Assembly (NCBI GenBank): GCA_937991945.1
Contig: CALKLO010000028.1
Span: 1-64,000, forward strand
Direction: 5' to 3'
From: an uncultured Granulosicoccus sp.
Lineage (GTDB): Bacteria; Pseudomonadota; Gammaproteobacteria; Granulosicoccales; Granulosicoccaceae
Length of the DNA: 64,000 nucleotides
Shown: positions 1-45,475 of the stretch, piece after piece
How the letters are laid out: every line of letters begins with the position of its first letter
Numbering within the stretch: the first letter of the stretch is position 1
Program-made: the position numbers and the translations under genes
The notes under the pieces: generated by a model
Database searches by the model: none
Seen by the model: only the letters and a program-made list of their open reading frames with translations
Told to the model about the DNA's origin: nothing

Positions 1-546
1 GGGTTGAAACCATGCTAACAGAGAACAAGTGAAACCGCCCATACAGCACACATTCTGTCCCGTTGGTGCCGAATTCACAGTATTAGCCACCAATCTAGTC
101 GACACAAACTACAGACTGAAGAGCACTGTCGATTTAGGGTAGGGCACCTGTATTAGCGATCTCCATTCAGAAAAATTGTGGATACCAAATTTAGTCATCG
201 GCGTCAAAACCTAATAAGTGCTGTCTTGTATACGACACTTCGTTAGCTACTCTGAAACAAAAATAAAATGCGAACATGTGTCACTGATTAGTAATTTACG
301 GAATATCCTAGTCGACGTGACAAGTTCATTAGATCGCGAAAAATCCTGTAGTAATCGGGATAAATCCATCGAGACTATGGCCACTACATCCATCTTTATT
401 CGGAATATAGTGGAGAAGAAATAAAAATCGGATGACGAGCGTAGAAAGAAAAAGAATCACCACCTAGACTGGCGAAACAAGAAGATGTAAAGAAATTGAA
501 GCCCATACTTCTATATTTGATTGTAATTGCCGAGATAGTGGGCTAG
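1..546. other. Non-coding, A+T-rich flank of the DUF262 gene
   Basis: No gene is supported here. A 68-codon open frame at 218-424 has no recognisable domain, begins inside the left direct repeat and shows no clear ribosome binding site. The stretch holds the left copy of a direct repeat (176-250). It is visibly richer in A and T than the housekeeping genes to the right, as expected for acquired DNA. Confidence 0.6.
176..250 (+). repeat. Left copy of island-bounding direct repeat
   Basis: The last 18 bases (233-250, CGACACTTCGTTAGCTAC) recur exactly at 2713-2730. Upstream of this core the two copies align without gaps, including GATACCA at 181-187 and TTGTA-like bases at 226-230. By hand count about 46 of 75 positions agree, and positions 201-220 are essentially unrelated. 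Similarity stops sharply after GCTAC. This suggests a recombination or cassette boundary; no integrase gene is present between the copies. Confidence 0.6.
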
Positions 547-579
547 GTGTACATGAGCTTTCAGAAAAAACTAATGCTT

Positions 580-585
580 AGGAGG
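580..585 (+). promoter_or_regulatory. Ribosome binding site for the DUF262 gene
   Basis: AGGAGG lies three bases before the ATG at 589, which is a short spacing. The upstream in-frame starts (GTG 547, ATG 553) have no comparable site. The DUF262 fold begins only a few residues after 589, so this start is preferred. Confidence 0.5.
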
Positions 586-588
586 CAA

Positions 589-2400
589 ATGGAAATTAAC
601 GCGGATGTTCACAGTATTGCAAAGTTAAAGGATTTTTTCTTCCTGGTTCCTGATTACCAGCGAGAATATGTTTGGAAAGTCGATGATCAGGTTGAGCAGT
701 TCTTGGAAGATATCGACAACGAGTATGATGTAGGTGCGGCCGATCAAAAAAGCTATTTTATTGGTTCAATCATCATTGTCAAAAATTCTGGAAAATATCA
801 TGTGATAGATGGCCAACAGCGACTTACAACTGCCGTAATCACACTATGTGCATTTAGAGATCTGCTTAAAGGCCTTACCCTAGATGACAAACAACAGAAC
901 TACTATAAAAGCATTGAAGAGTGGTTATCTGGTTTTGATATTGAAACTGATGAAACTCAGGTTCGTTTGGAGCTTCAATATGCAGAAAGCAAAGAATATT
1001 TAAGTAGCTTGATTTTAGGAAAACCATATAAAGACGAGGAAACGGCTTCTATAAAAAAAATGAGGGAAGCTTATGAACGTATTAAAGAGTACTTGGGTAG
1101 CTACCTTGAGCAGAGTATTGACAAGCTAGTATCGTTTGCCCGTTACTTTCTGACTAAAATCGATTTGGTGGTAATCGAATCAGAAAACCTTAGCAGTGCA
1201 TTAAAAATATTTGAGACGATCAATCAACGTGGGGTTGGTCTTAATGCGATGGATTTGGTTAAGAATTTGTTATTCAGCCAGGTCAAAGATGTCGAATTTC
1301 AGAAAATAAAAGAACACTGGAAGGAGATCAATCGGAATTTGCAATTTTGTGGCGAAGAGCAGAGCCCTTTGCGCTTTCTGCGTTATTTTCTAATGGCTCG
1401 GCATCATGATGGAATTTTACGGGAGGATGAAGTATACAAATGGGTTATATCAGCTGACGGTAAAAAAGCCACCCAATACGAAACCAAGCCGATGGAGCTT
1501 GCGTCCGAACTAGTAAAAATTTCGAAGCGTTACGCTGGGCTGGTTAAAGCCACAATGCACAAAAGTGACGGAGGGCAGTATTCTGCAGTTTCAAGGCTGG
1601 GGTTTATCAATAAATTCAAGTCTAGACAGCATTTGGTACTCCTTCTAGCGCTCAGCGAAAATTGTAGTGATGAAGTCATAGAAGCTCTAGCAAAAGAGTT
1701 GGAAAGTTTCTTCTTCTTTAGTAATACCATCGGCATTCAAGCCAAATACAACGAGCGTTTGTTCACACAATGGGCGGTCTCCCTACGGGCCGTGGAAGAC
1801 AAAATGCAGCTTGCAGAGGTTATCAGCGTTACTGTTGCTCCGTATATCAAAGACAAGTTTGGGCTATTCCGGCAATCGTTCATTAGCTTACAGCATCGCC
1901 AATATAATCCTCTTTATCGCCAGCGATATATATTAGGGCAACTTGAAAATACCATGCGACGTCTAGGAGGAATGCCTGAACTTGGGTTGTCCTTTTTTGA
2001 TAGCTTACAACTAGAACACATCCTTCCTCAGACACCAAAAGGTAGAAATCTTACTGATGAATTCGATGACCCAGACGACTACATCAACCACGTCGGCTTG
2101 TTAGGAAATGTCACATTACTTGAAAGCAATATTAATCAAGCTGTGAATAGCTGTAATGACTTGCTTGGTTCGTGGTTTGAAGAAAAACAATCAGAATATG
2201 CGAAGTCAGGCATTGAGTCGACCGCGCTATTAAACCATGACCATCGTATTGGTAAAAATACTATGCTTAATGCATTCAAAACTAACTATGGATACGAATT
2301 CAACATTTGGGATAAAAAGGCAATCCAGGATCGACAACATATTTTACTAACTTTGGCCCTAGAAACATGGCTCATTAATGGAAAGAGAGTAGACGTCTAA
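589..2400 (+). CDS. DUF262/DUF1524 protein, GmrSD-like restriction nuclease
   Basis: Single polypeptide of about 603 residues joining the two halves of GmrSD-type (type IV) modification-dependent restriction systems. The N-terminal DUF262 (ParB/Srx-like NTPase) domain shows PDYQREYVW at residues 21-29 and IDGQQRLTT at 73-81. The C-terminal DUF1524 His-Me-finger nuclease shows LEHILPQ at about 475-481, followed by a GLLGNVTLLE segment about 25 residues later. Known relatives (GmrSD, BrxU, SspE-like) cut DNA with modified bases or phosphorothioates; the target here is unknown. It stands alone, without a methylase or partner, between two direct repeats and in A+T-rich DNA. An in-frame GTG at 547 would add 14 residues. 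Family assignment is firm; an anti-phage role is inference. Confidence 0.85.
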   Translation: MEINADVHSIAKLKDFFFLVPDYQREYVWKVDDQVEQFLEDIDNEYDVGAADQKSYFIGSIIIVKNSGKYHVIDGQQRLTTAVITLCAFRDLLKGLTLDDKQQNYYKSIEEWLSGFDIETDETQVRLELQYAESKEYLSSLILGKPYKDEETASIKKMREAYERIKEYLGSYLEQSIDKLVSFARYFLTKIDLVVIESENLSSALKIFETINQRGVGLNAMDLVKNLLFSQVKDVEFQKIKEHWKEINRNLQFCGEEQSPLRFLRYFLMARHHDGILREDEVYKWVISADGKKATQYETKPMELASELVKISKRYAGLVKATMHKSDGGQYSAVSRLGFINKFKSRQHLVLLLALSENCSDEVIEALAKELESFFFFSNTIGIQAKYNERLFTQWAVSLRAVEDKMQLAEVISVTVAPYIKDKFGLFRQSFISLQHRQYNPLYRQRYILGQLENTMRRLGGMPELGLSFFDSLQLEHILPQTPKGRNLTDEFDDPDDYINHVGLLGNVTLLESNINQAVNSCNDLLGSWFEEKQSEYAKSGIESTALLNHDHRIGKNTMLNAFKTNYGYEFNIWDKKAIQDRQHILLTLALETWLINGKRVDV

Positions 2401-2643
2401 TCGGTAGACTTTGACTAATTACTCTATTAATAGATTGAAGTTCTGCCGGCTCGTACATGATCTCGTTTAGTGCAGACGGATACCTATGACAGCTCACACC
2501 ATCTGGATGTGCCCATGCACTAGTTTGTCGCTTACTATGGAAACTGTAGCCAAGCGAGTTGATTGACTACTCCGAATAGTTGCAGAGCCGATGGCGATAC
2601 CAGTGGTTTCAATCAAGATGTTTGATGCTCTCATCCGAACATC

Positions 2644-2667
2644 TTGGGGATACCGTTGGGGATACCA
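2644..2667 (+). repeat. Two-copy 12-bp tandem repeat beside the right boundary repeat
   Basis: TTGGGGATACCG is followed directly by TTGGGGATACCA. The second copy carries the GATACC that also opens the conserved part of both boundary repeats, 52 bases before the 18-base core in each case (181 to 233 and 2661 to 2713). Repeated short motifs at a fixed distance from a core resemble recombinase arm sites, but this is not proven. Confidence 0.5.
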
Positions 2668-2730
2668 GTGTGGGTGTTCGTGTCTCAGGGCCCGTGACCA
2701 GTGTTCTGTAAGCGACACTTCGTTAGCTAC
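2656..2730 (+). repeat. Right copy of island-bounding direct repeat
   Basis: The core CGACACTTCGTTAGCTAC at 2713-2730 is identical to 233-250, in the same orientation and 2,480 bases away. The unit 251-2730 would therefore carry the DUF262 gene plus one repeat copy, the arrangement expected of an inserted element or cassette. Confidence 0.6.
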
Positions 2731-2764
2731 CCCCGCTACCAACACTTAGTTCAAGTGAGTTTGA

Positions 2765-2796
2765 CCAAAAACTAGCCGCTTAAGTGCGGCTTTTTT
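2765..2796. terminator. Bidirectional intrinsic terminator
   Basis: AGCCGC (2774-2779) pairs with GCGGCT (2786-2791) around a six-base loop. It is followed by a T run on the plus strand (2791-2796) and preceded by an A run (2767-2771), which gives a T run on the minus strand. It can end transcripts leaving the island and transcripts of phoX. Confidence 0.75.
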
Positions 2797-2859
2797 GTGT
2801 CTGGAATTTGGTAAGGAGCCAGTACCTTGATCGGCACTGGCATCCCTTCTTGTCTTAAA

Positions 2860-2875
2860 GCAGCTTAGAAGCTGC
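2860..2875 (-). terminator. Hairpin at the 3' end of phoX
   Basis: GCAGCTT and AAGCTGC form a 7-bp inverted repeat just after the phoX stop codon. Only a short T run follows on the minus strand, so it may stabilise the 3' end more than terminate by itself. Confidence 0.4.
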
Positions 2876-2877
2876 CA

Positions 2878-4767
2878 TTAGCCTACTAGCCCTCCGTCAT
2901 CACGAGTCACCGCCAAAATGGATGAGCGTGGAGTAGAGGCTTCACCGCCATCAGGCCAATGACCGTCACCTCGCTCGCCAGGGTGCTGTACGCCGACAAA
3001 CATGGTGCGACGATCTGGGCTCCAGGTTAAGCCGGTTATTTCCGCTTGCTTCGGCCCTGTGAGAAAACGTCGAATTTCACCGGTAGCAGGATCTCCCAAG
3101 AGCATTTGGTTATTGCCTTGGCCAGCGAAGTCTTTTTCGTTGGAATAGTTTCCATCGGTTTGAATCCAAAGCATGCCGTTTGAATCAAACTTCAAACCGT
3201 CAGGGGAATTGAACATATTGCCTGCTGATATATTCGATGAGCCAGCTCGGTCGTCGGTATGCACTGCTGGGTTGCCTGCGAGTACATAGAGGTCCCAGGC
3301 AAACGCACGGCTGGTATGGTCAGCGGCATCGGGGCGCCAGCGTACTATCTGTCCATACTTATTAGCCTCTCGTGGGTTCGGCCCGCCGACAGGCGTTTCA
3401 TCGCCTCCTGAGTTAGTTTTTACACCACGGTTAGAGTTGTTTGTTAAGCAGCAATACACTTCCGCAGCCATGGGGTTTGCGCTTACCCACTCTGGTCGAT
3501 CCATGGTGGTTGCTCCAACCATGGAAGCGGCTTGTCGTGTGTGTATGCAAATTTCTGCCATGCTTTCCATGCCGGTGGCCTCTGGAGATAGCTCAAGCCA
3601 TTCGCCGGTGCCGTCATCGTTAAATTTGGCGGCGTATAGTTTGCCTTCTTCTAACAGAGAGTCAGTTTCACCGCCGGGTGCGTAGACGCCATCAGAGACA
3701 TAGCGGTATAAAAATTCCCCGCGTTCATCGTCTCCCATGTAAACAACAATATGCCCATCGCCGTTAACCACGACTTCGGCGTTCTCATGCTTAAAGCGTC
3801 CAAGTGCCGTACGTTTTTTAGGGCGGCTGTTAGGGTCGGTTGCATCCACCTCAGTGACATAGCCATGACGATTGTATTCGTTAGATTCTTTCGCTAAGTC
3901 AAAACGGTCGTCTATGTCATGCCAGCCATAACCCCGTCCTTTCGGTGAGATGCCATAGCGTTTCATGTCAGCGGACACCGGATGCTCTTGATCCTCTGTT
4001 GCAAAGTAGCCGTTGAAGTTTTCTTCGCAGGCAAGGTAGGTGCCCCAAGGAGTGGAGCCATTGCCGCAGTTGTTAAAGGTTCCGCGCACTATTTTACCGT
4101 CTGGATCTGCGGCGGTTTTCATGAGAGCGTGACCGGCAGCAGGGCCGGTAATTTCCATTTCTACATCGGGGGTTAGGCGACGGTTGTAAGGGCTGTCTTT
4201 AACGATGGACCACACGCCGTCAGTTTGTTTAATCTCTGCGACGGTCAGGCCGTGTGCGTTCATGCCTTTTAATTTGTCATCGTCTGTCTCAGCTTCGCCT
4301 TCTGGGCGATTTCCCCAAATGATGCTTCTGTTGGTGTACTCGTTGTTTGCGATCAGTATGAATTTATCGCCGTGAGGGTAGACCTCCATACCGTCGTTAT
4401 TATCGCCAAAGGACGTTGCTTGGCTGGCGCCTGTACCGCGAGTTGCATGATCAAAATCGGGTGCGTCAGACCACAGCGGATCTCCCCACCTCGACATAAC
4501 CCGAGCGGTGTATCCAGCCGGTACGGTAACGCCGTCTGCGGTGCTAACCGCAATGGCATCAAATGCAAAACGATTGGGTGCGGCAAAGGCTGGCTGTGAC
4601 ATGAGCGTATTACCAAACGCTGCAACACCACCTAGCGCTACGACGCCTTTGAGTAAATCGCGCCGAGACATGGAGCGATCAAGAACACGATCAAACTCTG
4701 TTTCTTCTGGTCTGGGATTTATATATTCGTCGAATTCATCAAACGACAGATCATCTGGGTTTCTCAT
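2878..4767 (-). CDS. phoX: Tat-exported alkaline phosphatase, PhoX family (DUF839)
   Basis: Predicted to release phosphate from organic phosphoesters in the periplasm or outside the cell; PhoX enzymes use Ca2+ and Fe3+ cofactors. The 629-residue product has a twin-arginine signal: SRRDLLK at 34-40, then a hydrophobic stretch ending in AFA near residue 62. This fits cofactor-loaded export by Tat. The body is a PhoX/DUF839 beta-propeller type sequence with recurring blocks such as NNCGNGSTPWGTYLACEEN, found in this family. A good Shine-Dalgarno (AAGGAG) precedes the start. The gene stands alone and ends at a hairpin and bidirectional terminator. No clear Pho box was found upstream, so phosphate control is not shown. 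Confidence 0.9.
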   Translation of the reverse strand: MRNPDDLSFDEFDEYINPRPEETEFDRVLDRSMSRRDLLKGVVALGGVAAFGNTLMSQPAFAAPNRFAFDAIAVSTADGVTVPAGYTARVMSRWGDPLWSDAPDFDHATRGTGASQATSFGDNNDGMEVYPHGDKFILIANNEYTNRSIIWGNRPEGEAETDDDKLKGMNAHGLTVAEIKQTDGVWSIVKDSPYNRRLTPDVEMEITGPAAGHALMKTAADPDGKIVRGTFNNCGNGSTPWGTYLACEENFNGYFATEDQEHPVSADMKRYGISPKGRGYGWHDIDDRFDLAKESNEYNRHGYVTEVDATDPNSRPKKRTALGRFKHENAEVVVNGDGHIVVYMGDDERGEFLYRYVSDGVYAPGGETDSLLEEGKLYAAKFNDDGTGEWLELSPEATGMESMAEICIHTRQAASMVGATTMDRPEWVSANPMAAEVYCCLTNNSNRGVKTNSGGDETPVGGPNPREANKYGQIVRWRPDAADHTSRAFAWDLYVLAGNPAVHTDDRAGSSNISAGNMFNSPDGLKFDSNGMLWIQTDGNYSNEKDFAGQGNNQMLLGDPATGEIRRFLTGPKQAEITGLTWSPDRRTMFVGVQHPGERGDGHWPDGGEASTPRSSILAVTRDDGGLVG

Positions 4768-5260
4768 TGTGCTATCTCCTTAACTTGTTGAATAAGTGAA
4801 GACGCGCTGCGAAATTAAGCTGAAGGTGTATACGCAGCAGTTTTCCCGAATAAATACAGTACCACTACTCACAACTGTGACCAATGGTCCCTTGGTGGTG
4901 CTTATGATTTCTAACGTTACAAATGGTGGTTGGATAGCAATAGGTATAGGTATTTCTATATGTGAACCAAAGCTATTAATTTTCCTTATAGATAACGACA
5001 GTCAAGTTCTTGTATCTTTGTAAAGCTGTTCTGTTGCTCAGCGGAATAATCTTATAATGCAAATATGACACTCGTAAGAAATGCTCATTTAAATTTTAAA
5101 GCAACAATTCGGGCGAGAATTTACGTTAATAGCCTGCCGATGTCCTATCCAATGTTGAACAAGCCAGGTTTTTTATGCGTATAAATGTGTGTCGCAATTG
5201 AGCTTGTCACTGCCTCCCAATTCGCAACATAATACGAAAACTAAACGGTACAACGTACGC
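4768..5260. other. Intergenic region between divergent phoX and dehydrogenase genes
   Basis: No gene is supported. A 75-codon plus frame at 4796-5023 is compositionally unlike a protein gene and has no domain. The region must hold promoters for both neighbours. A consensus -10 hexamer TATAAT at 5053-5058 points toward the dehydrogenase, without a convincing -35. Confidence 0.5.
5053..5058 (+). promoter_or_regulatory. Possible -10 element for the downstream dehydrogenase
   Basis: Perfect TATAAT hexamer. The best upstream partners are off spacing, so only the -10 is claimed. A transcript from here would have a leader of roughly 195 bases before the ATG at 5261. Confidence 0.35.
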
Positions 5261-6217
5261 ATGAATATTGGATTTATTGGTCTAGGTAATGTCGGTGGCA
5301 AACTAGCGGGCAGTTTGGTCCGAAACGGCTTCCAGGTGACGGTTCTAGATTTAGACAAGAACGCTGCCGATGAGCTTTTAAATCAAGGCGCAACATGGGG
5401 TGAGAGTGCTGCTCAATTGGCCACTAGTTGTGACATCGTAATTACTTGTTTGCCTTCACCTGCTGCGAGTGCCAGTGTTGTTGAAGGACCTAATGGTGTT
5501 CTAGAAGGCTTAACACCTGGCACTATCTGGGCTGAAATGAGCACGACTGATGAAGCCGAGGTGACACGCCTAGGCGCAAAAATTATTGAGAAAGGTGGGC
5601 ATGCGGTTGACTGCCCAGTATCGGGTGGCTGCCACCGAGCAGCAACAGGAAACATCGCAATTTTCGCCGGCTGCGACAGACCTGTTTTCGACACCTTGTT
5701 GCCTGTGCTCAAAGCCATGGGGCGACGCATATTGCACACCGGCGACTTGGGTAGTGCGTCTGTACTAAAGGTTGTCACCAATTACTTAGCAACTGCAAAC
5801 CTATTGAGCATCAGCGAAGCGTTAGTCACGTGTAAAGCTGCCGGTATGGACATGGCAACGGCCTATGAGGCTATTAAGGTATCGTCGGGAAATTCCTTCG
5901 TGCACGAAACTGAAAGCCAAGTCATTCTCAATGGCTCACGCGATATTAACTTCACCATGGATTTAGTACTAAAAGACATTGGCTTGTTTCAATCGGTGGC
6001 AGATCGCGCAGGCGTGCCATTAGAAATCAATCCTTTGCTTATAAGCATTATGCAAGATGGTGCTGAGCGATTCGGCATGCGCGAATGGTCGCCCAATATA
6101 ATCAAACGACTAGAAGAGGCTGCAGGCGTTCAAGTACTAGCAGACGGGTTCCCCGCTGAAATGACTGATGACGAGCCCGAAGAGGAAGGCTACGAAATTA
6201 TTCCTAAAGGTCGGTAA
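5261..6217 (+). CDS. NAD(P)-dependent beta-hydroxyacid dehydrogenase (3-hydroxyisobutyrate dehydrogenase family)
   Basis: Cytosolic oxidoreductase of about 318 residues. The Rossmann motif GLGNVGG is at 7-13, the substrate-binding segment CPVSGG at 118-123, and the expected catalytic lysine of the family at K170 in ASVLKVV. A C-terminal helical domain follows. The family interconverts 3-hydroxyacids and semialdehydes (3-hydroxyisobutyrate, tartronate semialdehyde, glyoxylate); the substrate cannot be told from sequence. The last ~30 residues form an acidic tail (DDEPEEEGYE) not usual in the family. The start at 5261 is chosen because the Rossmann fold begins at once; an upstream frame to 5189 adds 24 unlikely residues. 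Valine catabolism is possible but no valine genes adjoin it. Confidence 0.8.
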   Translation: MNIGFIGLGNVGGKLAGSLVRNGFQVTVLDLDKNAADELLNQGATWGESAAQLATSCDIVITCLPSPAASASVVEGPNGVLEGLTPGTIWAEMSTTDEAEVTRLGAKIIEKGGHAVDCPVSGGCHRAATGNIAIFAGCDRPVFDTLLPVLKAMGRRILHTGDLGSASVLKVVTNYLATANLLSISEALVTCKAAGMDMATAYEAIKVSSGNSFVHETESQVILNGSRDINFTMDLVLKDIGLFQSVADRAGVPLEINPLLISIMQDGAERFGMREWSPNIIKRLEEAAGVQVLADGFPAEMTDDEPEEEGYEIIPKGR

Positions 6218-6271
6218 TAATTTGCGAGTGTTTAGTGGGGTTGTGGAGCTATTGTGAGTTCCGCAATTCCA

Positions 6272-6727
6272 CTAGATGGGAAGCACGGTCGTGTTCTTGA
6301 TCTCGCTCATGGCAAAGGATGAGCTCATTTGTCCCACCGAGGGAAGACTTAGTAAATCGTTTTTCATCAGCTTTTCGTATTCCTTGATAGAGCCGGTTAC
6401 TACTCTGAGCATGTAGTCCTGATCGCCTGACATGGTGTAGCACTGCAAAATGTTCGGGTGTTCTCTGGCAGCCTGTTCAAAGGCTTCCATGCTGGGTTTG
6501 TCGTGCTGCCGCAGCCTGATGAAGCAAAACACCGTGATGTGTAGACCAAGCGCGTCTGCATCCAGCACGACATTGCGTTCAATTATTAGCCCGTCAGATT
6601 CCAATTTTTTCAAACGGCGCCAGCAAGGGGTGTGGCTCAAGCCAATGCGCTCTCCGAGTTCTGCCACACTGAGCTGTGGCTCTGCTTGAAGCGCTCTTAA
6701 TAGTTTTAAATCTGTCTTGTCAGGCAT
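6272..6727 (-). CDS. Lrp/AsnC family transcriptional regulator
   Basis: A 151-residue regulator starting MPDKTDLKLL. An N-terminal winged helix-turn-helix (LSVAELGERIGLSHTPCWRR) is followed by a RAM/ligand-sensing domain (from about residue 65, with GDQDYMLRVV). Such proteins form octamers that wrap DNA and respond to amino acids. It is divergent from the oxidoreductase/leucine operon with 141 bases between, so control of that operon by leucine or another amino acid is a strong inference. The start at 6727 fits the family; the open frame extends 53 codons further upstream but lacks homology. No strong ribosome binding site is seen. Confidence 0.88.
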   Translation of the reverse strand: MPDKTDLKLLRALQAEPQLSVAELGERIGLSHTPCWRRLKKLESDGLIIERNVVLDADALGLHITVFCFIRLRQHDKPSMEAFEQAAREHPNILQCYTMSGDQDYMLRVVTGSIKEYEKLMKNDLLSLPSVGQMSSSFAMSEIKNTTVLPI

Positions 6728-6731
6728 CAAA

Positions 6732-6822
6732 TTAGGATGTAATTTGTAAATAGTTATATATATTAGGATGAATGTCCTACGACGCGCAATCTGAACTCGC
6801 AAAAAGCGCAAACTTATCCTAA
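6732..6822. promoter_or_regulatory. Candidate Lrp-family operator array
   Basis: TTAGGAT occurs at 6732-6738 and 6763-6769, and inverted (ATCCTAA) at 6816-6822. The spacings are 31 and 53 bases, close to three and five helical turns, so all copies lie on one face of the DNA. The second copy is part of a dyad, TAGGA-6-TCCTA. This is the pattern expected for a wrapping Lrp-type protein. Motif identity is seen; binding is inference. Confidence 0.5.
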
Positions 6823-6868
6823 GAATTTCAGTGCAGACTATTGGTTGGCGAAACAAGGGGCAGGTTCT

Positions 6869-9800
6869 ATGGGTTCTTCCCATCATCTAGACGACAAATA
6901 CACAGCCCTAGAAGGCAGTGCGTTTATGACTGGCACGCAGGCCTTGGTGCGATTGCCCATGGTGCAGATGCGACGTGATAAAGCGGCAGGCTTAAACACC
7001 GCCGCGTTTGTCACAGGTTACCGAGGGTCGCCTCTGGGCTCTTACGACCAACAGCTACAGATGGCTAAGTCTCATCTAGATGCGCACGATGTCAGATTCC
7101 AACCCGGTGTTAACGAAGATCTAGCGGCAACCGCTATTTGGGGAACCCAGCAGGTACCGTTGTCGGAGCAAGCCAATCGTGAAGGTGTGGTGGGGTATTG
7201 GTACGGTAAGGGGCCAGGCGTTGATCGTTGCGGCGATGTCTTCAAGCATGGAAACGCTGCGGGCTCTTCATCGCAGGGTGGAGTGTTGTGCTTTGCAGGC
7301 GATGACCACACCGCAAAATCATCAACATTACCGCACCAATCTGACCATGCCTTTATGGCAGCTGTCATGCCGGTACTCTACCCATCTTCTATTCATGAAT
7401 TTATCGAGCTTGGCTTGTTTGGCATCGCCATGTCACGTTTTGCAGGTACCTGGGTTGGCTACAAAGTCATTTCAGATACTGTGGAAACCAGTGCGGTTGT
7501 GTCTCTAGGTGGAGAGCAAAGAACCTTCGTTCTTCCCGACGACTATGAGATGCCTAATGGCGGACTTAACTTACGATGGCCAGACCCACCGCTTGTTCAA
7601 GATGATCGCTTGCAAGAACATAAAGCGTACGCAGCGTTAGCCTTTGCACGTGCCAATAAAATAGATCAAGTCGTACTGGATTCGAAAGAAGCGCGTTTTG
7701 GCATTGTGGCCACGGGTAAAGCGTTTGAAGATGTTCGTCAGGCACTCGCTGAGCTAGATATTGACGAGCAAGTGGCTACCAGTATTGGTCTGCGTTTATA
7801 TAAGGTGCGAATGCCATGGCCGCTTGAGCCATCTGGCATACGATCGTTCTCCGAAGGATTGGATGAGGTGCTCATCATCGAGGAGCGTCGTGAAATCATT
7901 GAGCATCAAATTAAACAACAACTGTTCAATTGGCGCGCCGATGTAAGGCCGCGCATTATTGGTAAATTTGATGAAAACGATGAGCCCTTTTTGCCTTTAT
8001 CTGCAGCCTTAACGACATCGCGGGTAGCAAGAGCCATTGCAGTACGTATTTTAAAGCTTCCCCTAGAAGAATCCTTGAAGCGACGCATTGAAGAACGTCT
8101 TAACTATTTGCAGCGTCGTGCCGATGAGCGTGCATCGTTGGTTGCCCCTATCGAGAGGCAGCCGTGGTTTTGTTCCGGTTGCCCGCATAACTCATCAACG
8201 AAAGTGCCGGAAGGTTCTAAAGCCATGGCAGGTATTGGTTGTCACTACATGGTTCAGTGGATGGATAGAAGTACTGAGACCTTTACTCAAATGGGGGGTG
8301 AGGGTGTCTCGTGGACAAGCTTGAGTCATTACACCGATGAAAAGCATCGCTTCGTTAATATTGGTGATGGCACATACTTTCATTCAGGTTTATTAGCTAT
8401 TCGTGCATCGGTTGCTTCAGGTGTGAACATTACTTATAAAGTGCTATTTAATGATGCGGTTGCCATGACAGGTGGGCAACCTGTCGATGGTGACCTCAGT
8501 GCAACAGATATCGCCCATCAAATTCACGCTGAAGGCGTGTCACCTATCTATGTGGTGAGCGATGAGCCTGAAAATTTTGCACTCGGTGATTTACCCCAAG
8601 GCACCATCATTGAACACCGTGAAAACTTAGATTCTGTACAGCGCACCCTGCGCGAACTAACAGGGTGTAATGCCATCGTGTATGCGCAAACTTGTGCAGC
8701 TGAAAAACGTCGTCGTCGCAAGCGCGGACTTATGCCGGACCCGGCAAAGCGCGTCATCATAAACAGTGATGTGTGTGAGGGCTGTGGTGATTGTTCTATT
8801 CAATCAAACTGTGTGTCTATTGAACCGCTAGATACGCCTATGGGGCGTAAGCGACAAATCAATCAATCGAGTTGCAATAAAGATTTCTCCTGTGTGCAAG
8901 GTTTTTGTCCTTCGTTCGTAACGGTTGAAGGTGGCTCACTAAAGCAATTGGCAAAGCCAACAGTTGATGTGTTGCAAGAAGTATTGGAAATGCCTGTTGT
9001 TCCTGTGCTAACCGATACGCCTTGGAATATCGCAATAACCGGTGTGGGTGGTACCGGTGTGCTAACCATAGGCGCGCTGATGGGCATGGCTGCGCACGTC
9101 GATGGGCATGCCTCTATGATTTTGGATATGGCAGGTTTAGCGCAAAAAGGTGGGGCTGTAGTGAGTCATGTGCGTCTCGCTAAAACACCCTCAATGGTGA
9201 CCAGTCCTCATATTGTTGTGGGCAGAGCAGATTTATTAATAGCAGCAGATGCCGTCGTGGCAGCATCTGCCGATGGGTCAGTGTTGTGCGATGCCAATAG
9301 AACAGAAGCTATTGTTAATACAACAACGGCACCTGTTGCTAGTTTTGTTCATCATCGAGATGTCGATTTTAAGTACAGTGCTGTGGAAGCTCGCATTGGG
9401 CAGGTGTCTAAAAGCCATGTGCATTTTCAGCCGTTTGGGAAAATCGCCAAAGAAAAAGTAGGCGATACAATTGCAACCAATATTATGATGCTCGGCTACG
9501 CGTGGCAAAGTGGTTTAGTGCCTTTAAGTTTTGACGCGCTTATGGCGGCAATAGAGCTTAACGGTGTGGCGGTTAATGCCAACAAGCAGGCTTTTCACTG
9601 GGGGCGCAAGTTGAGGCTTCAACCGGTGTTGCTCAAAAAGCACACGGTGTCTACAGTGAATTTTGAAACGACCGCGAACATGGCATCGAGTACGAAAATG
9701 CCAGGTACGCTCGATTCTCTGATTGATCATCGTAGTAATCATTTAAGTGCTTATCAAAATAAACGACTAGCAAGCCGTTACCGGCGTGTTGTGCAACAGG

Positions 9801-43070: not shown

Positions 43071-45475
43071 ATGACAAAGGAGTTATCAGTCGCGTGTTAA
43101 AACGACTGTTCAAAGGAATTGTGTTTTCGAGCGTATTGGTTGCGCTATCTGCCTGCAATCAACAAGACGAAAACGACACCGTAGGTAGTGCTGGTGGTAC
43201 AGCCAACATGGCGTTTTCTGCACCTGATATTTTGCTGCAAGCTAGGGCTATTGTTCGTCAAAATCTGATTTTGAGAGTGACGATTAATGGACAAGTCGTG
43301 CAAGTCACACCAGATGCTGACGGACAATATATCTTTGAAACTAGCCTTCCTCCGTTGTCTTCAACGGTCGTTTCGATTGAGTGGGTGGAGTTGATCGATG
43401 GCGCTGAGTTACCGTTGGCACGAGCTAGCAAGCCGCTGAATGTCGGGTCGGTATCCAGTCCGGTCGTACTGAGGTTTACAGAGTTTGATACATCCATCGA
43501 TTCTGATAACGATGGATTCTCCAACCTCCAAGAGCGTCGAGAAGGGTCTTTATTCAATGATTCAACATCACCGATAGCTCCTCCGGTACTAGTGAATTTC
43601 GAGGTGCAATTAAAATTACCTGTCGAGCTTGTCGAAGCCTCTGAAGAGAGGCGGGCGGCAGTCGATGCAACAGCCGCTGTTAATGGCGTGCAAATTGTAC
43701 TGACGCGTGAAGGTAATGATTGGCGTGGATCGGTCACCGTGACTGAAAACTCTGACCCGTTGGTTGATGCTAATTTCTACTCTGATGCGGAGCAGACCTT
43801 ACTTATCGCCAATGCGTCGCGTAATCAAAACGCTGGTGGTGGAACCACTGTTGTTATTGGTGAAAATGACTATGAAACAGACAGTTTTGACAATGATGGC
43901 GATGAGTTAAGCAATATCGAGGAAACAGCATTAGGTACGGACCCATTAGATCTAGAAGATCCGCCTGCTGATGAAGACAATGATGGTGTTCCAGACGAGT
44001 CTGACAACTGTCCGATCAATCCTAATGCTGATCAGGCTGATATAGATAATGATGGAGCCGGCGACGTTTGCGATCTAATTAACGATGACGATACAGATGG
44101 CGACGGTGTTAATAACGATGTTGACAACTGTCCTGCTCGAGCAAACTCTGATCAAGCGGACCGCGATGATGATGGTCTGGGCGATTTGTGCGACCTGTCT
44201 GATGACACTGATACAGACGGAGACGGTTTTAGAGACGCTATAGATAATTGCCCTGCTATCGCAAACGTCGATCAAAGCGATGTCGATGGCGATTCTGTGG
44301 GTGATGTGTGTGATTTGATCAATGGCATTGATCCCGACGGCGATAGCGTCAACGACCCCAACGATAATTGCCCGGTAGATGCCAATACAGACCAAGCAGA
44401 TATCGATGCTGACGGCATTGGTGATGTATGTGATTTAACTAACGGCCTAGATCCTGACGGTGATGGTGTGAATGACCCCTTAGACAATTGCCCCACTGAC
44501 TCTAATAGCGATCAGGCGGATATCGACGGTGACAATATCGGAGATGTATGTGATCTGACGAATGGTCTTGACCCTGACGGCGACGGAGTAAACAACCCAA
44601 CTGATAATTGTCCTGCCATCCCTAATGCTGATCAGGCAGATACCGATGGAGACGAAATTGGTGATGTTTGCGACTCCACCAACGGATTAGATCTAGACGG
44701 TGACGGTGTCAATAATGATGTGGATAACTGCCCATCAGATAGCAATGCAGATCAAGCTGACTCTGATGGCGACGGTATAGGAAACGTGTGTGACACCACC
44801 AATGATTTGGACCCTGATGGGGACAACGTTGACGATCCATTGGATAACTGTCCAGTCGATGCAAATGCTGACCAAGCAGATATTGATAGTGATGGCGTAG
44901 GCGATGTCTGCGACACCACAAACGGTCTTGACCCTGATGGGGACAATGTTAACGATCCGTTGGACAACTGCCCAGTCGATGCAAACACAGACCAAGCTAA
45001 CAATCACGGCACAGCGTTGGGTGACGTTTGTGAAGATACCGATTCAGATACGATTTTTGATAACCTCGATAACTGTCCAGTGGATGCCAATACGAATCAA
45101 GCGGATGCTGATGGTGACGACATCGGAGACGTATGCGATACGAGTAGCGGCTTAGATACTGATCTCGACACAATACTCGATGCCGTAGATAACTGCCCAA
45201 CTGATGCTAATACTGATCAAGCGAATAATTTCGGCACCGCATTGGGTGATGCCTGTGAAGACACCGACTTAGACACAATAGTAGATCTCGCTGATAACTG
45301 CCCAATAGATGCCAATCTAAGTCAGGCTGATAACCACGGCACGACATTAGGCGATGCGTGCGAAGACACCGATCTCGATACGATATTAGATGACGTCGAT
45401 AACTGCCCAGTCGTAGTTAACCTGGCTCAGCTCGATACTGATAGCGATGGTGTAGGAGATGCCTGCACGGTTTAA
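43067..45475 (+). CDS. Lipoprotein with 13 thrombospondin type 3 repeats
   Basis: 802-residue calcium-binding surface lipoprotein. The lipobox is ALSAC near residue 30. Residues up to about 300 form Ig-like beta domains and a first EF-hand-like segment (DSDNDGFSNLQE). From 313 to the end there are 13 units starting DNCP. Ten are canonical, most about 40 residues (DxDGDGVGDVCD); three are 35-residue variants lacking the acidic loop (ANNHGTALGDVCED). Asp-rich loops of this kind bind Ca2+ and give stiff rods. No OmpA-type or autotransporter domain follows. A surface adhesin or spacer role is likely but not shown. Confidence 0.88.
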   Translation: MNDKGVISRVLKRLFKGIVFSSVLVALSACNQQDENDTVGSAGGTANMAFSAPDILLQARAIVRQNLILRVTINGQVVQVTPDADGQYIFETSLPPLSSTVVSIEWVELIDGAELPLARASKPLNVGSVSSPVVLRFTEFDTSIDSDNDGFSNLQERREGSLFNDSTSPIAPPVLVNFEVQLKLPVELVEASEERRAAVDATAAVNGVQIVLTREGNDWRGSVTVTENSDPLVDANFYSDAEQTLLIANASRNQNAGGGTTVVIGENDYETDSFDNDGDELSNIEETALGTDPLDLEDPPADEDNDGVPDESDNCPINPNADQADIDNDGAGDVCDLINDDDTDGDGVNNDVDNCPARANSDQADRDDDGLGDLCDLSDDTDTDGDGFRDAIDNCPAIANVDQSDVDGDSVGDVCDLINGIDPDGDSVNDPNDNCPVDANTDQADIDADGIGDVCDLTNGLDPDGDGVNDPLDNCPTDSNSDQADIDGDNIGDVCDLTNGLDPDGDGVNNPTDNCPAIPNADQADTDGDEIGDVCDSTNGLDLDGDGVNNDVDNCPSDSNADQADSDGDGIGNVCDTTNDLDPDGDNVDDPLDNCPVDANADQADIDSDGVGDVCDTTNGLDPDGDNVNDPLDNCPVDANTDQANNHGTALGDVCEDTDSDTIFDNLDNCPVDANTNQADADGDDIGDVCDTSSGLDTDLDTILDAVDNCPTDANTDQANNFGTALGDACEDTDLDTIVDLADNCPIDANLSQADNHGTTLGDACEDTDLDTILDDVDNCPVVVNLAQLDTDSDGVGDACTV
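44003..45475 (+). repeat. Coding tandem repeat, 120- and 105-base units
   Basis: Thirteen DNCP-type units, encoded mainly as 120-base blocks with three 105-base variants (starting near 44963, 45188 and 45293). DNA copies are diverged in sequence but keep period and frame. The 105-base forms cluster in the last five units, where canonical and variant units mix. Confidence 0.8.

What the first reader, a model, noticed from the sequence alone, without database searches (positions are those of the whole stretch)
176..2730. Single-gene defence cassette bounded by matching direct repeats
The DUF262/DUF1524 gene lies between two same-orientation repeats whose last 18 bases are identical and whose similarity stops abruptly at GCTAC. 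A GATACC motif lies exactly 52 bases before the core at both ends. There is no integrase in between, so the unit 251-2730 looks like a small cassette mobilised in trans. Chance identity of 18 bases at this distance is very unlikely.
Basis: partly seen in the sequence, partly recalled or inferred. Interest (0 to 1): 0.65.

Follow-up and report, generated by a model that had tools for sequence, protein, structure and literature searches.

The report
Defence-gene unit inserted in tRNA gene
A single restriction-enzyme gene sits in a 2.5-kb stretch between two copies of an attachment-site-like sequence, and the right-hand copy joins the broken-off end of a tRNA gene, so this looks like a small passenger unit of a tRNA-targeted genomic island rather than a new kind of cassette.

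Summary
CGACACTTCGTTAGCTAC occurs at 233-250 and 2713-2730, each time as the end of a 74-bp repeat (45 of 74 identical) that stops abruptly on the right. The intact gene, with the same downstream flank (148 of 149 bases), lies at the end of another contig of the same assembly (C131). A related genome keeps the order tRNA-fMet to phoX. Repeat 2 is therefore the right junction (attR) of DNA inserted in tRNA-fMet, and C131 is best read as the empty site. Repeat 1 reads as an internal junction between tandem units. The GmrSD-type gene then lies in a 2.48-kb integrase-less unit, like the cis-mobilizable elements known from tandem tRNA or tmRNA islands. It is not an integron cassette: no attC structure is present, although relatives have real attC arrays. 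The exact core is in no other searched genome, so a widespread cassette family is not supported; one relative has a similar tRNA junction with other cargo. The contig starts at base 1, so the left end and any integrase are missing.

The parts
1..176 (.). Non-coding end of the neighbouring unit (unit A, inferred); the contig begins at base 1, so the rest is missing
   Evidence: G000:C28 starts here; apart from the core copy and chance-level hits no other place in the own genome matches 1-588
177..250 (+). Site 1: 74-bp repeat copy, read as internal junction P_A-core joined to the left end of the GmrSD unit
   Evidence: 45/74 identity to 2657-2730 with sharp edges; 0 of 500 shuffles reach the alignment score
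181..186 (+). GATACC, 52 bases before the core of site 1; putative recombinase arm motif
233..250 (+). 18-base core, copy 1
251..588 (.). Non-coding leader of the unit, with ribosome-binding-like AGGAGG at about 580
   Evidence: sequence; no long open frame
589..2400 (+). Single-chain GmrSD-type (DUF262 plus DUF1524) gene, 603 aa
   Evidence: PF03235 E 2.2e-39 and PF07510 E 1.2e-12; DGQQR and EHILP motifs present
2479..2666 (+). Cluster of four GATACC motifs (2479, 2596, 2649, 2661), putative arm sites
   Evidence: 4 of the 19 forward copies in the window lie here
2657..2730 (+). Site 2: 74-bp repeat copy, element side (P_B) of the right junction
2713..2730 (+). 18-base core, copy 2
2727..2741 (+). 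Orphan last 15 bases of tRNA-fMet (CTACCCCCGCTACCA)
   Evidence: identical to the 3' end of the intact tRNA-Met(cat) on C131
2774..2791 (+). Terminator-like stem behind the tRNA end
2878..4767 (-). phoX, chromosomal flank
   Evidence: PF05787 E 2.4e-171; in G015 it lies about 2.9 kb behind tRNA-fMet

Best explanation
Bases 1-2730 are the right-hand part of DNA inserted site-specifically in the T-arm of a tRNA-fMet gene. Site 2 plus the tRNA fragment is the right junction (attR). Site 1 is the same element-side half-site belonging to a neighbouring unit, joined to the left end of the GmrSD unit. So the 2.48-kb GmrSD unit was most likely added by recombination at CTAC into the right junction of a resident unit (tandem accretion). 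It has no integrase and depends on a recombinase encoded by the missing part of the island or elsewhere. The gene product probably cuts modified foreign DNA. Shown by sequence: the repeats, the tRNA 3' fragment, the intact tRNA with the same flank on another contig, and the intact gene. Inferred: the accretion order, a circular intermediate, GATACC as arm sites, the type of recombinase, and the defence function.
For: Window 2727-2875 is repeated at the end of own contig C131 with 148/149 identity, directly behind the T-arm of an intact tRNA-Met(cat). The own genome has one intact tRNA-fMet 3' end (C131) and one orphan 3' fragment (the window); ARAGORN finds no tRNA in window 1-8000. G015 has the same glycosyltransferase and tRNA-fMet order, with phoX about 2.9 kb further on, so C131 and phoX were probably neighbours ancestrally. 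The two repeats share the half left of CTAC and nothing right of it, as expected for P_A-core-P'_B and P_B-core-tRNA end. GATACC cluster. G014:C75 has another orphan tRNA-fMet 3' fragment joined at the same base to TAGCTAC, with a GGGGTGCCA motif at nearly the same distance (70 versus 71 bases from the CTAC end) and other upstream genes. No integrase among the ORFs of 251-2730. Contigs end within 711 bp behind tRNA-fMet in 6 of the 21 genus genomes that have it intact, which fits a variable site.
Against: The left junction and the restored tRNA are not in hand. The internal junction lacks a tRNA 3' end, unlike the published tandem islands in which each member carries one. The resemblance of the G014 arm to the window arms is not significant by plain alignment (77 of 500 shuffles reach it against P_B, 317 of 500 against P_A). 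The core resembles the tRNA site only moderately (10 of 18 bases). C131 could instead be one end of the same island carrying a copy of the flank. No matching integrase was identified.
Confidence: 0.64

Rival explanations
1. One larger island or prophage remnant lies in tRNA-fMet; the GmrSD gene is ordinary cargo at its right edge and site 1 is only a leftover or duplicated attachment arm, so the 2.48-kb unit never moved on its own.
For: The right junction in tRNA-fMet holds equally; no excised form or second copy of the unit was seen; the contig is truncated at base 1.
Against: Site 1 keeps the full 74-bp register including the GATACC spacing, and identity stops exactly at CTAC, which a random duplication need not do.
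Confidence: 0.25
2. The unit is an integron gene cassette and the repeats are attC sites.
For: The genome has an integron integrase (C128:58-999, 360.6 bits, over the cut-off), at a contig end; the core holds GTTAGC, close to an attC R' box (box consensus recalled); single-gene units with a shared right end fit cassettes.
Against: No complementary R'' box and no hairpin of the folded strand; my attC scan found 5 and 6 candidates in two loci of G002 but none at these sites; the right edge is a tRNA gene; the leader and trailer are about 300 bp each, long for a cassette (recalled).
Confidence: 0.04
3. Transposition by an unknown transposase, or a chimeric assembly, put unrelated DNA next to a tRNA fragment.
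For: No integrase is present in the kept part, and the assembly is a draft with contig ends here.
Against: The repeats are direct, not inverted; the overlap with the tRNA is only 4 bases, too short for an assembler join (general knowledge); G014 shows a junction at the same tRNA base.
Confidence: 0.05

Closest known systems
Cis-mobilizable elements (CIMEs) and tandem accretion of ICEs/IMEs at attR (PMC5704250, passages read)
   Same: Unit between att-like sites, without integration or transfer genes, next to other units at the 3' end of a tRNA gene
   Different: The neighbour that would mobilise it is not in hand; the internal junction has no end of the target gene; descent from an ICE or IME cannot be tested
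Tandem ssrA islands of Dehalococcoides, 15 of them without integration module (PMC3146451, passages read)
   Same: Tandem units behind an RNA gene, conserved motif before the repeat, some units without integrase
   Different: There the repeat is the 3' end of ssrA at every junction; here the shared 18 bases lie on the element side and only the last junction has the tRNA end
tRNA islands as mapped by Islander (PMC4383910, passages read)
   Same: Displaced 3' fragment of a tRNA gene, crossover in the T-stem region
   Different: No integrase in the retained part; restored tRNA not seen
GmrSD / RloF type IV restriction enzymes (PMC4619093, passages read)
   Same: Both domains in one chain, DGQQR motif
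   Different: Here alone; the homologues whose neighbourhoods I read lie in or near type I RM genes

Membership tests
tRNA-targeted genomic island | Displaced fragment of a tRNA gene at one end | tested here: met
   2727-2741 is the 3' end of tRNA-fMet; intact gene on C131
tRNA-targeted genomic island | Restored tRNA gene at the other end | not testable with these tools
   contig C28 starts at window base 1; the intact tRNA on C131 is followed by chromosomal flank
tRNA-targeted genomic island | Integrase gene inside | tested here: inconclusive
   none in 1-2730; the rest of the island is missing
Cis-mobilizable element (CIME) | att-like sites at both ends | tested here: met
   sites 1 and 2; function not tested
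Cis-mobilizable element (CIME) | No integration or transfer genes | tested here: met
   one real gene in 251-2730
Cis-mobilizable element (CIME) | Mobilised together with an adjacent integrative element | not testable with these tools
   the neighbour is cut off at the contig start
Integron gene cassette | attC with complementary R''/L'' and L'/R' boxes and a hairpin | tested here: not met
Integron gene cassette | Array next to an integron integrase | tested here: inconclusive
   the genome has one (C128), on another contig that also ends there
GmrSD type IV restriction enzyme | DUF262 with DGQQR and DUF1524 domain in one chain | tested here: met
GmrSD type IV restriction enzyme | Modification-dependent cleavage | not testable with these tools
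   needs an assay

The most novel reading that the evidence does not exclude
In this genus the tRNA-fMet gene may serve as a loading site for single-gene, integrase-less units that stack one behind another through a shared 74-bp half-site (GGATACC arm plus 18-base core). That would give an integron-like array without attC hairpins, in which internal junctions carry no tRNA end, used among other things to load defence genes. The G014 junction, with the same tRNA base and other cargo, would be a second member.
Probability: 0.17. Interest if true: 0.62.

Novelty: new member of a known kind. Interest (0 to 1): 0.38.

Why it matters
It turns an unexplained repeat pair into a precisely mapped insertion in a tRNA-fMet gene, with a probable empty site in the same assembly. 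It shows a lone GmrSD gene, whose nearest homologues with a known neighbourhood sit in or near type I RM loci, packaged as a 2.48-kb unit. If such units move by themselves, the locus would be a small, testable model of how defence genes are loaded onto tRNA hot spots without their own integrase.

Tried and rejected
attC hypothesis: folds and a self-written attC scan found no attC at the sites; the same scan found 5 and 6 candidate sites in two loci of G002 (L080, L088). It also gave 3 candidates in L086, 1 in L090 and 2 in the window (the one printed lies at 60 kb), which I read as chance.

Cassette family by exact core: 57 genomes including the own, 27 genomes of the genus with up to 3 mismatches (hits no more than the reversed-pattern control overall), genome contigs, viral contigs, bipartite pattern in 27 genomes (the two window sites are the only pair, the rest about at control level). 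state that the own or very near genomes may be left out.

phoX neighbourhoods in relatives: in 15 loci compared, DNA likeness to the window stopped at the phoX 3' end; uninformative until the tRNA was found. Rfam and ARAGORN: nothing at the repeats. P arms as decayed tRNA 5' parts: weak (53, 28 and 99 of 500 shuffles reach the score). The orphan-like hit in G022:C234 lies inside a coding frame and is taken as chance. Close homologues in viral contigs: none. Tyrosine recombinases seen through the integron model in the own genome: IntI on C128, Xer-like on C31 and C50 (named by eye), one phage-type on C65 near tRNA-Phe, one broken on C33; none assigned to these sites.

Papers: passages only of PMC5704250, PMC4383910, PMC3146451 and PMC4619093; the others were seen as search listings. 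Those five searches listed no paper on this locus; I claim no more than that.

Full report
What is there. The window begins at the first base of contig C28 of a draft genome with 158 contigs. An 18-base sequence occurs exactly at 233-250 and 2713-2730 and nowhere else in the window, even with three mismatches. In fixed register the likeness spans 74 bp, 177-250 versus 2657-2730 (45/74), with background identity on both sides (19/56 and 21/80). The ends of the 74-bp block are conserved (TGnGGATACCA at the left, the 18-base core at the right) and the middle varies. Without CTAC the two regions align better than any of 500 shuffles.

What the right edge is. Searching 2401-2880 in 95 genomes gave one strong second match, in the own genome: 2727-2875 equals C131:39259-39407 at 99%. 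C131 ends there. It holds an intact tRNA-Met(cat) gene (ARAGORN), preceded by a 341-aa gene that looks like a glycosyltransferase and by a nuo operon (both named by eye). The shared stretch starts with the last 15 bases of that tRNA gene and runs on through its terminator almost to the phoX stop; the one difference is at 2811. The window holds no tRNA gene in 1-8000, and a pattern for the tRNA 3' end finds just two places in the own genome, C131 intact and the window orphan. In G015 the same 341-aa gene and tRNA-fMet lie about 2.9 kb before phoX. The simplest reading is that C131 and phoX are natural neighbours and that the DNA left of 2727 was inserted in the tRNA gene. C131 would be the empty allele in a mixed population. 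A second reading, that C131 is one end of the island with a captured copy of the flank, is not excluded.

What the left repeat is. It carries the same element-side half-site but continues on the right with TCTGAAAC, not with the tRNA end. If a unit with ends P'_B and P_B recombines at CTAC into an existing junction P_A-CTAC-tRNA end, the product is P_A-CTAC-P'_B ... P_B-CTAC-tRNA end, which is the order seen. The GmrSD unit would then be 251-2730. This step is inference. Four GATACC motifs at 2479-2666 look like recombinase arm sites; the clustering is unusual (about 1e-4 by a Poisson count over the window) but was noticed after the fact, and 14 of 4092 six-mers reach such a density somewhere in the window.

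A second case. G014:C75 has an orphan tRNA-fMet 3' end whose left neighbour is TAGCTAC, diverging from the tRNA at the same base, with a GGGGTGCCA motif 70 bases before the end of CTAC, against 71 in the window copies. Upstream are other genes: a 113-aa frame without a Pfam match and a 251-aa frame with none over its cut-off. Plain alignment of its arm to the window arms is not significant (77 and 317 of 500 shuffles), so this is a lead, not a proof. In 6 of the 21 genus genomes with an intact tRNA-fMet 3' end the contig ends within 711 bp behind it (G000 134, G002 31, G007 69, G009 275, G018 711, G022 148; one locus per genome examined; the other 6 of the 27 genomes gave no intact match).

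The gene. 603 aa from ATG 589, both GmrSD domains, DGQQR at residue 74 and EHILP at 476, best PADLOC models HEC-06 and Orf5. Of 57 genomes five have a match including the own; the best in another genome is 28% identical. The nearest homologue found is 70% identical in a Pontiellaceae contig, between what look like type I RM genes (named by eye). A 55% one is on Klebsiella plasmids near an annotated type I restriction subunit R, and another 55% one is on an unannotated phage record. This fits the published neighbourhood of the family (PMC4619093, passages). In the window it stands alone.

Not an integron cassette. The genome has an integron integrase at a contig end (C128) and 24 of 57 genomes have one over the cut-off. 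But the sites here have no complementary R'' box and no hairpin, whereas two loci of G002 show 5 and 6 attC candidates of about 100 bp with the same scan.

Recombinase. None was identified. The short arm-like repeats favour a tyrosine recombinase (general knowledge). Large serine recombinases lie beside a tRNA-fMet 3' end with the same 24 bases in three of ten viral contigs, so a serine enzyme is not excluded.

How it compares. CIMEs keep att sites but lack integration and transfer genes, and other elements accrete with them at attR (PMC5704250). Tandem ssrA islands of Dehalococcoides include 15 without an integration module and have a conserved motif before the repeat (PMC3146451). The window unit fits that kind. 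It differs in that the shared bases lie on the element side and the internal junction lacks the tRNA end. The missing left part decides whether that is a real variant.

Noticed in passing
L433 (G005:C21) 44-280; L432 (G009:C157) 2705-2944; L434 (G021:C3, minus strand) near 2843-3060; L442 (G012:C56) 2524-2680: Behind tRNA-fMet of four relatives lie tandem units of about 106-112 bp that repeat the tRNA 3' end (altered in G012) and carry an inverted copy of a T-arm strand (GAACCTACGACC). Unexplained; perhaps emptied attachment sites.
   Followed up: partly
L425 (G014:C75) 1-1777: Orphan tRNA-fMet 3' end joined to TAGCTAC with other cargo upstream.
   Followed up: partly
L447, L448, L452 (viral contigs): Large serine recombinases (Resolvase, Recombinase, zinc ribbon domains) lie next to a tRNA-fMet 3' end with the same 24 bases (L448 read).
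   Followed up: partly
L023 (G000:C128) 46-1002: Integron integrase of the own genome starts 45 bases from the contig end, so its attI and array are not assembled; in several relatives the intI gene also lies within about 300 bases of a contig end.
   Followed up: partly
L080 and L088 (G002): Two integron arrays with attC candidates of about 100 bp beside two different intI genes.
   Followed up: partly
L015 (G000:C65) 923-2478: A phage-type integrase gene lies near tRNA-Phe, a sign of another tRNA island in this genome.
   Followed up: no
window 43980-45100: Repeated 16-17-mers (44021/44621, 44810/44930) and dense six-mer repeats, probably a repeat-rich gene.
   Followed up: no
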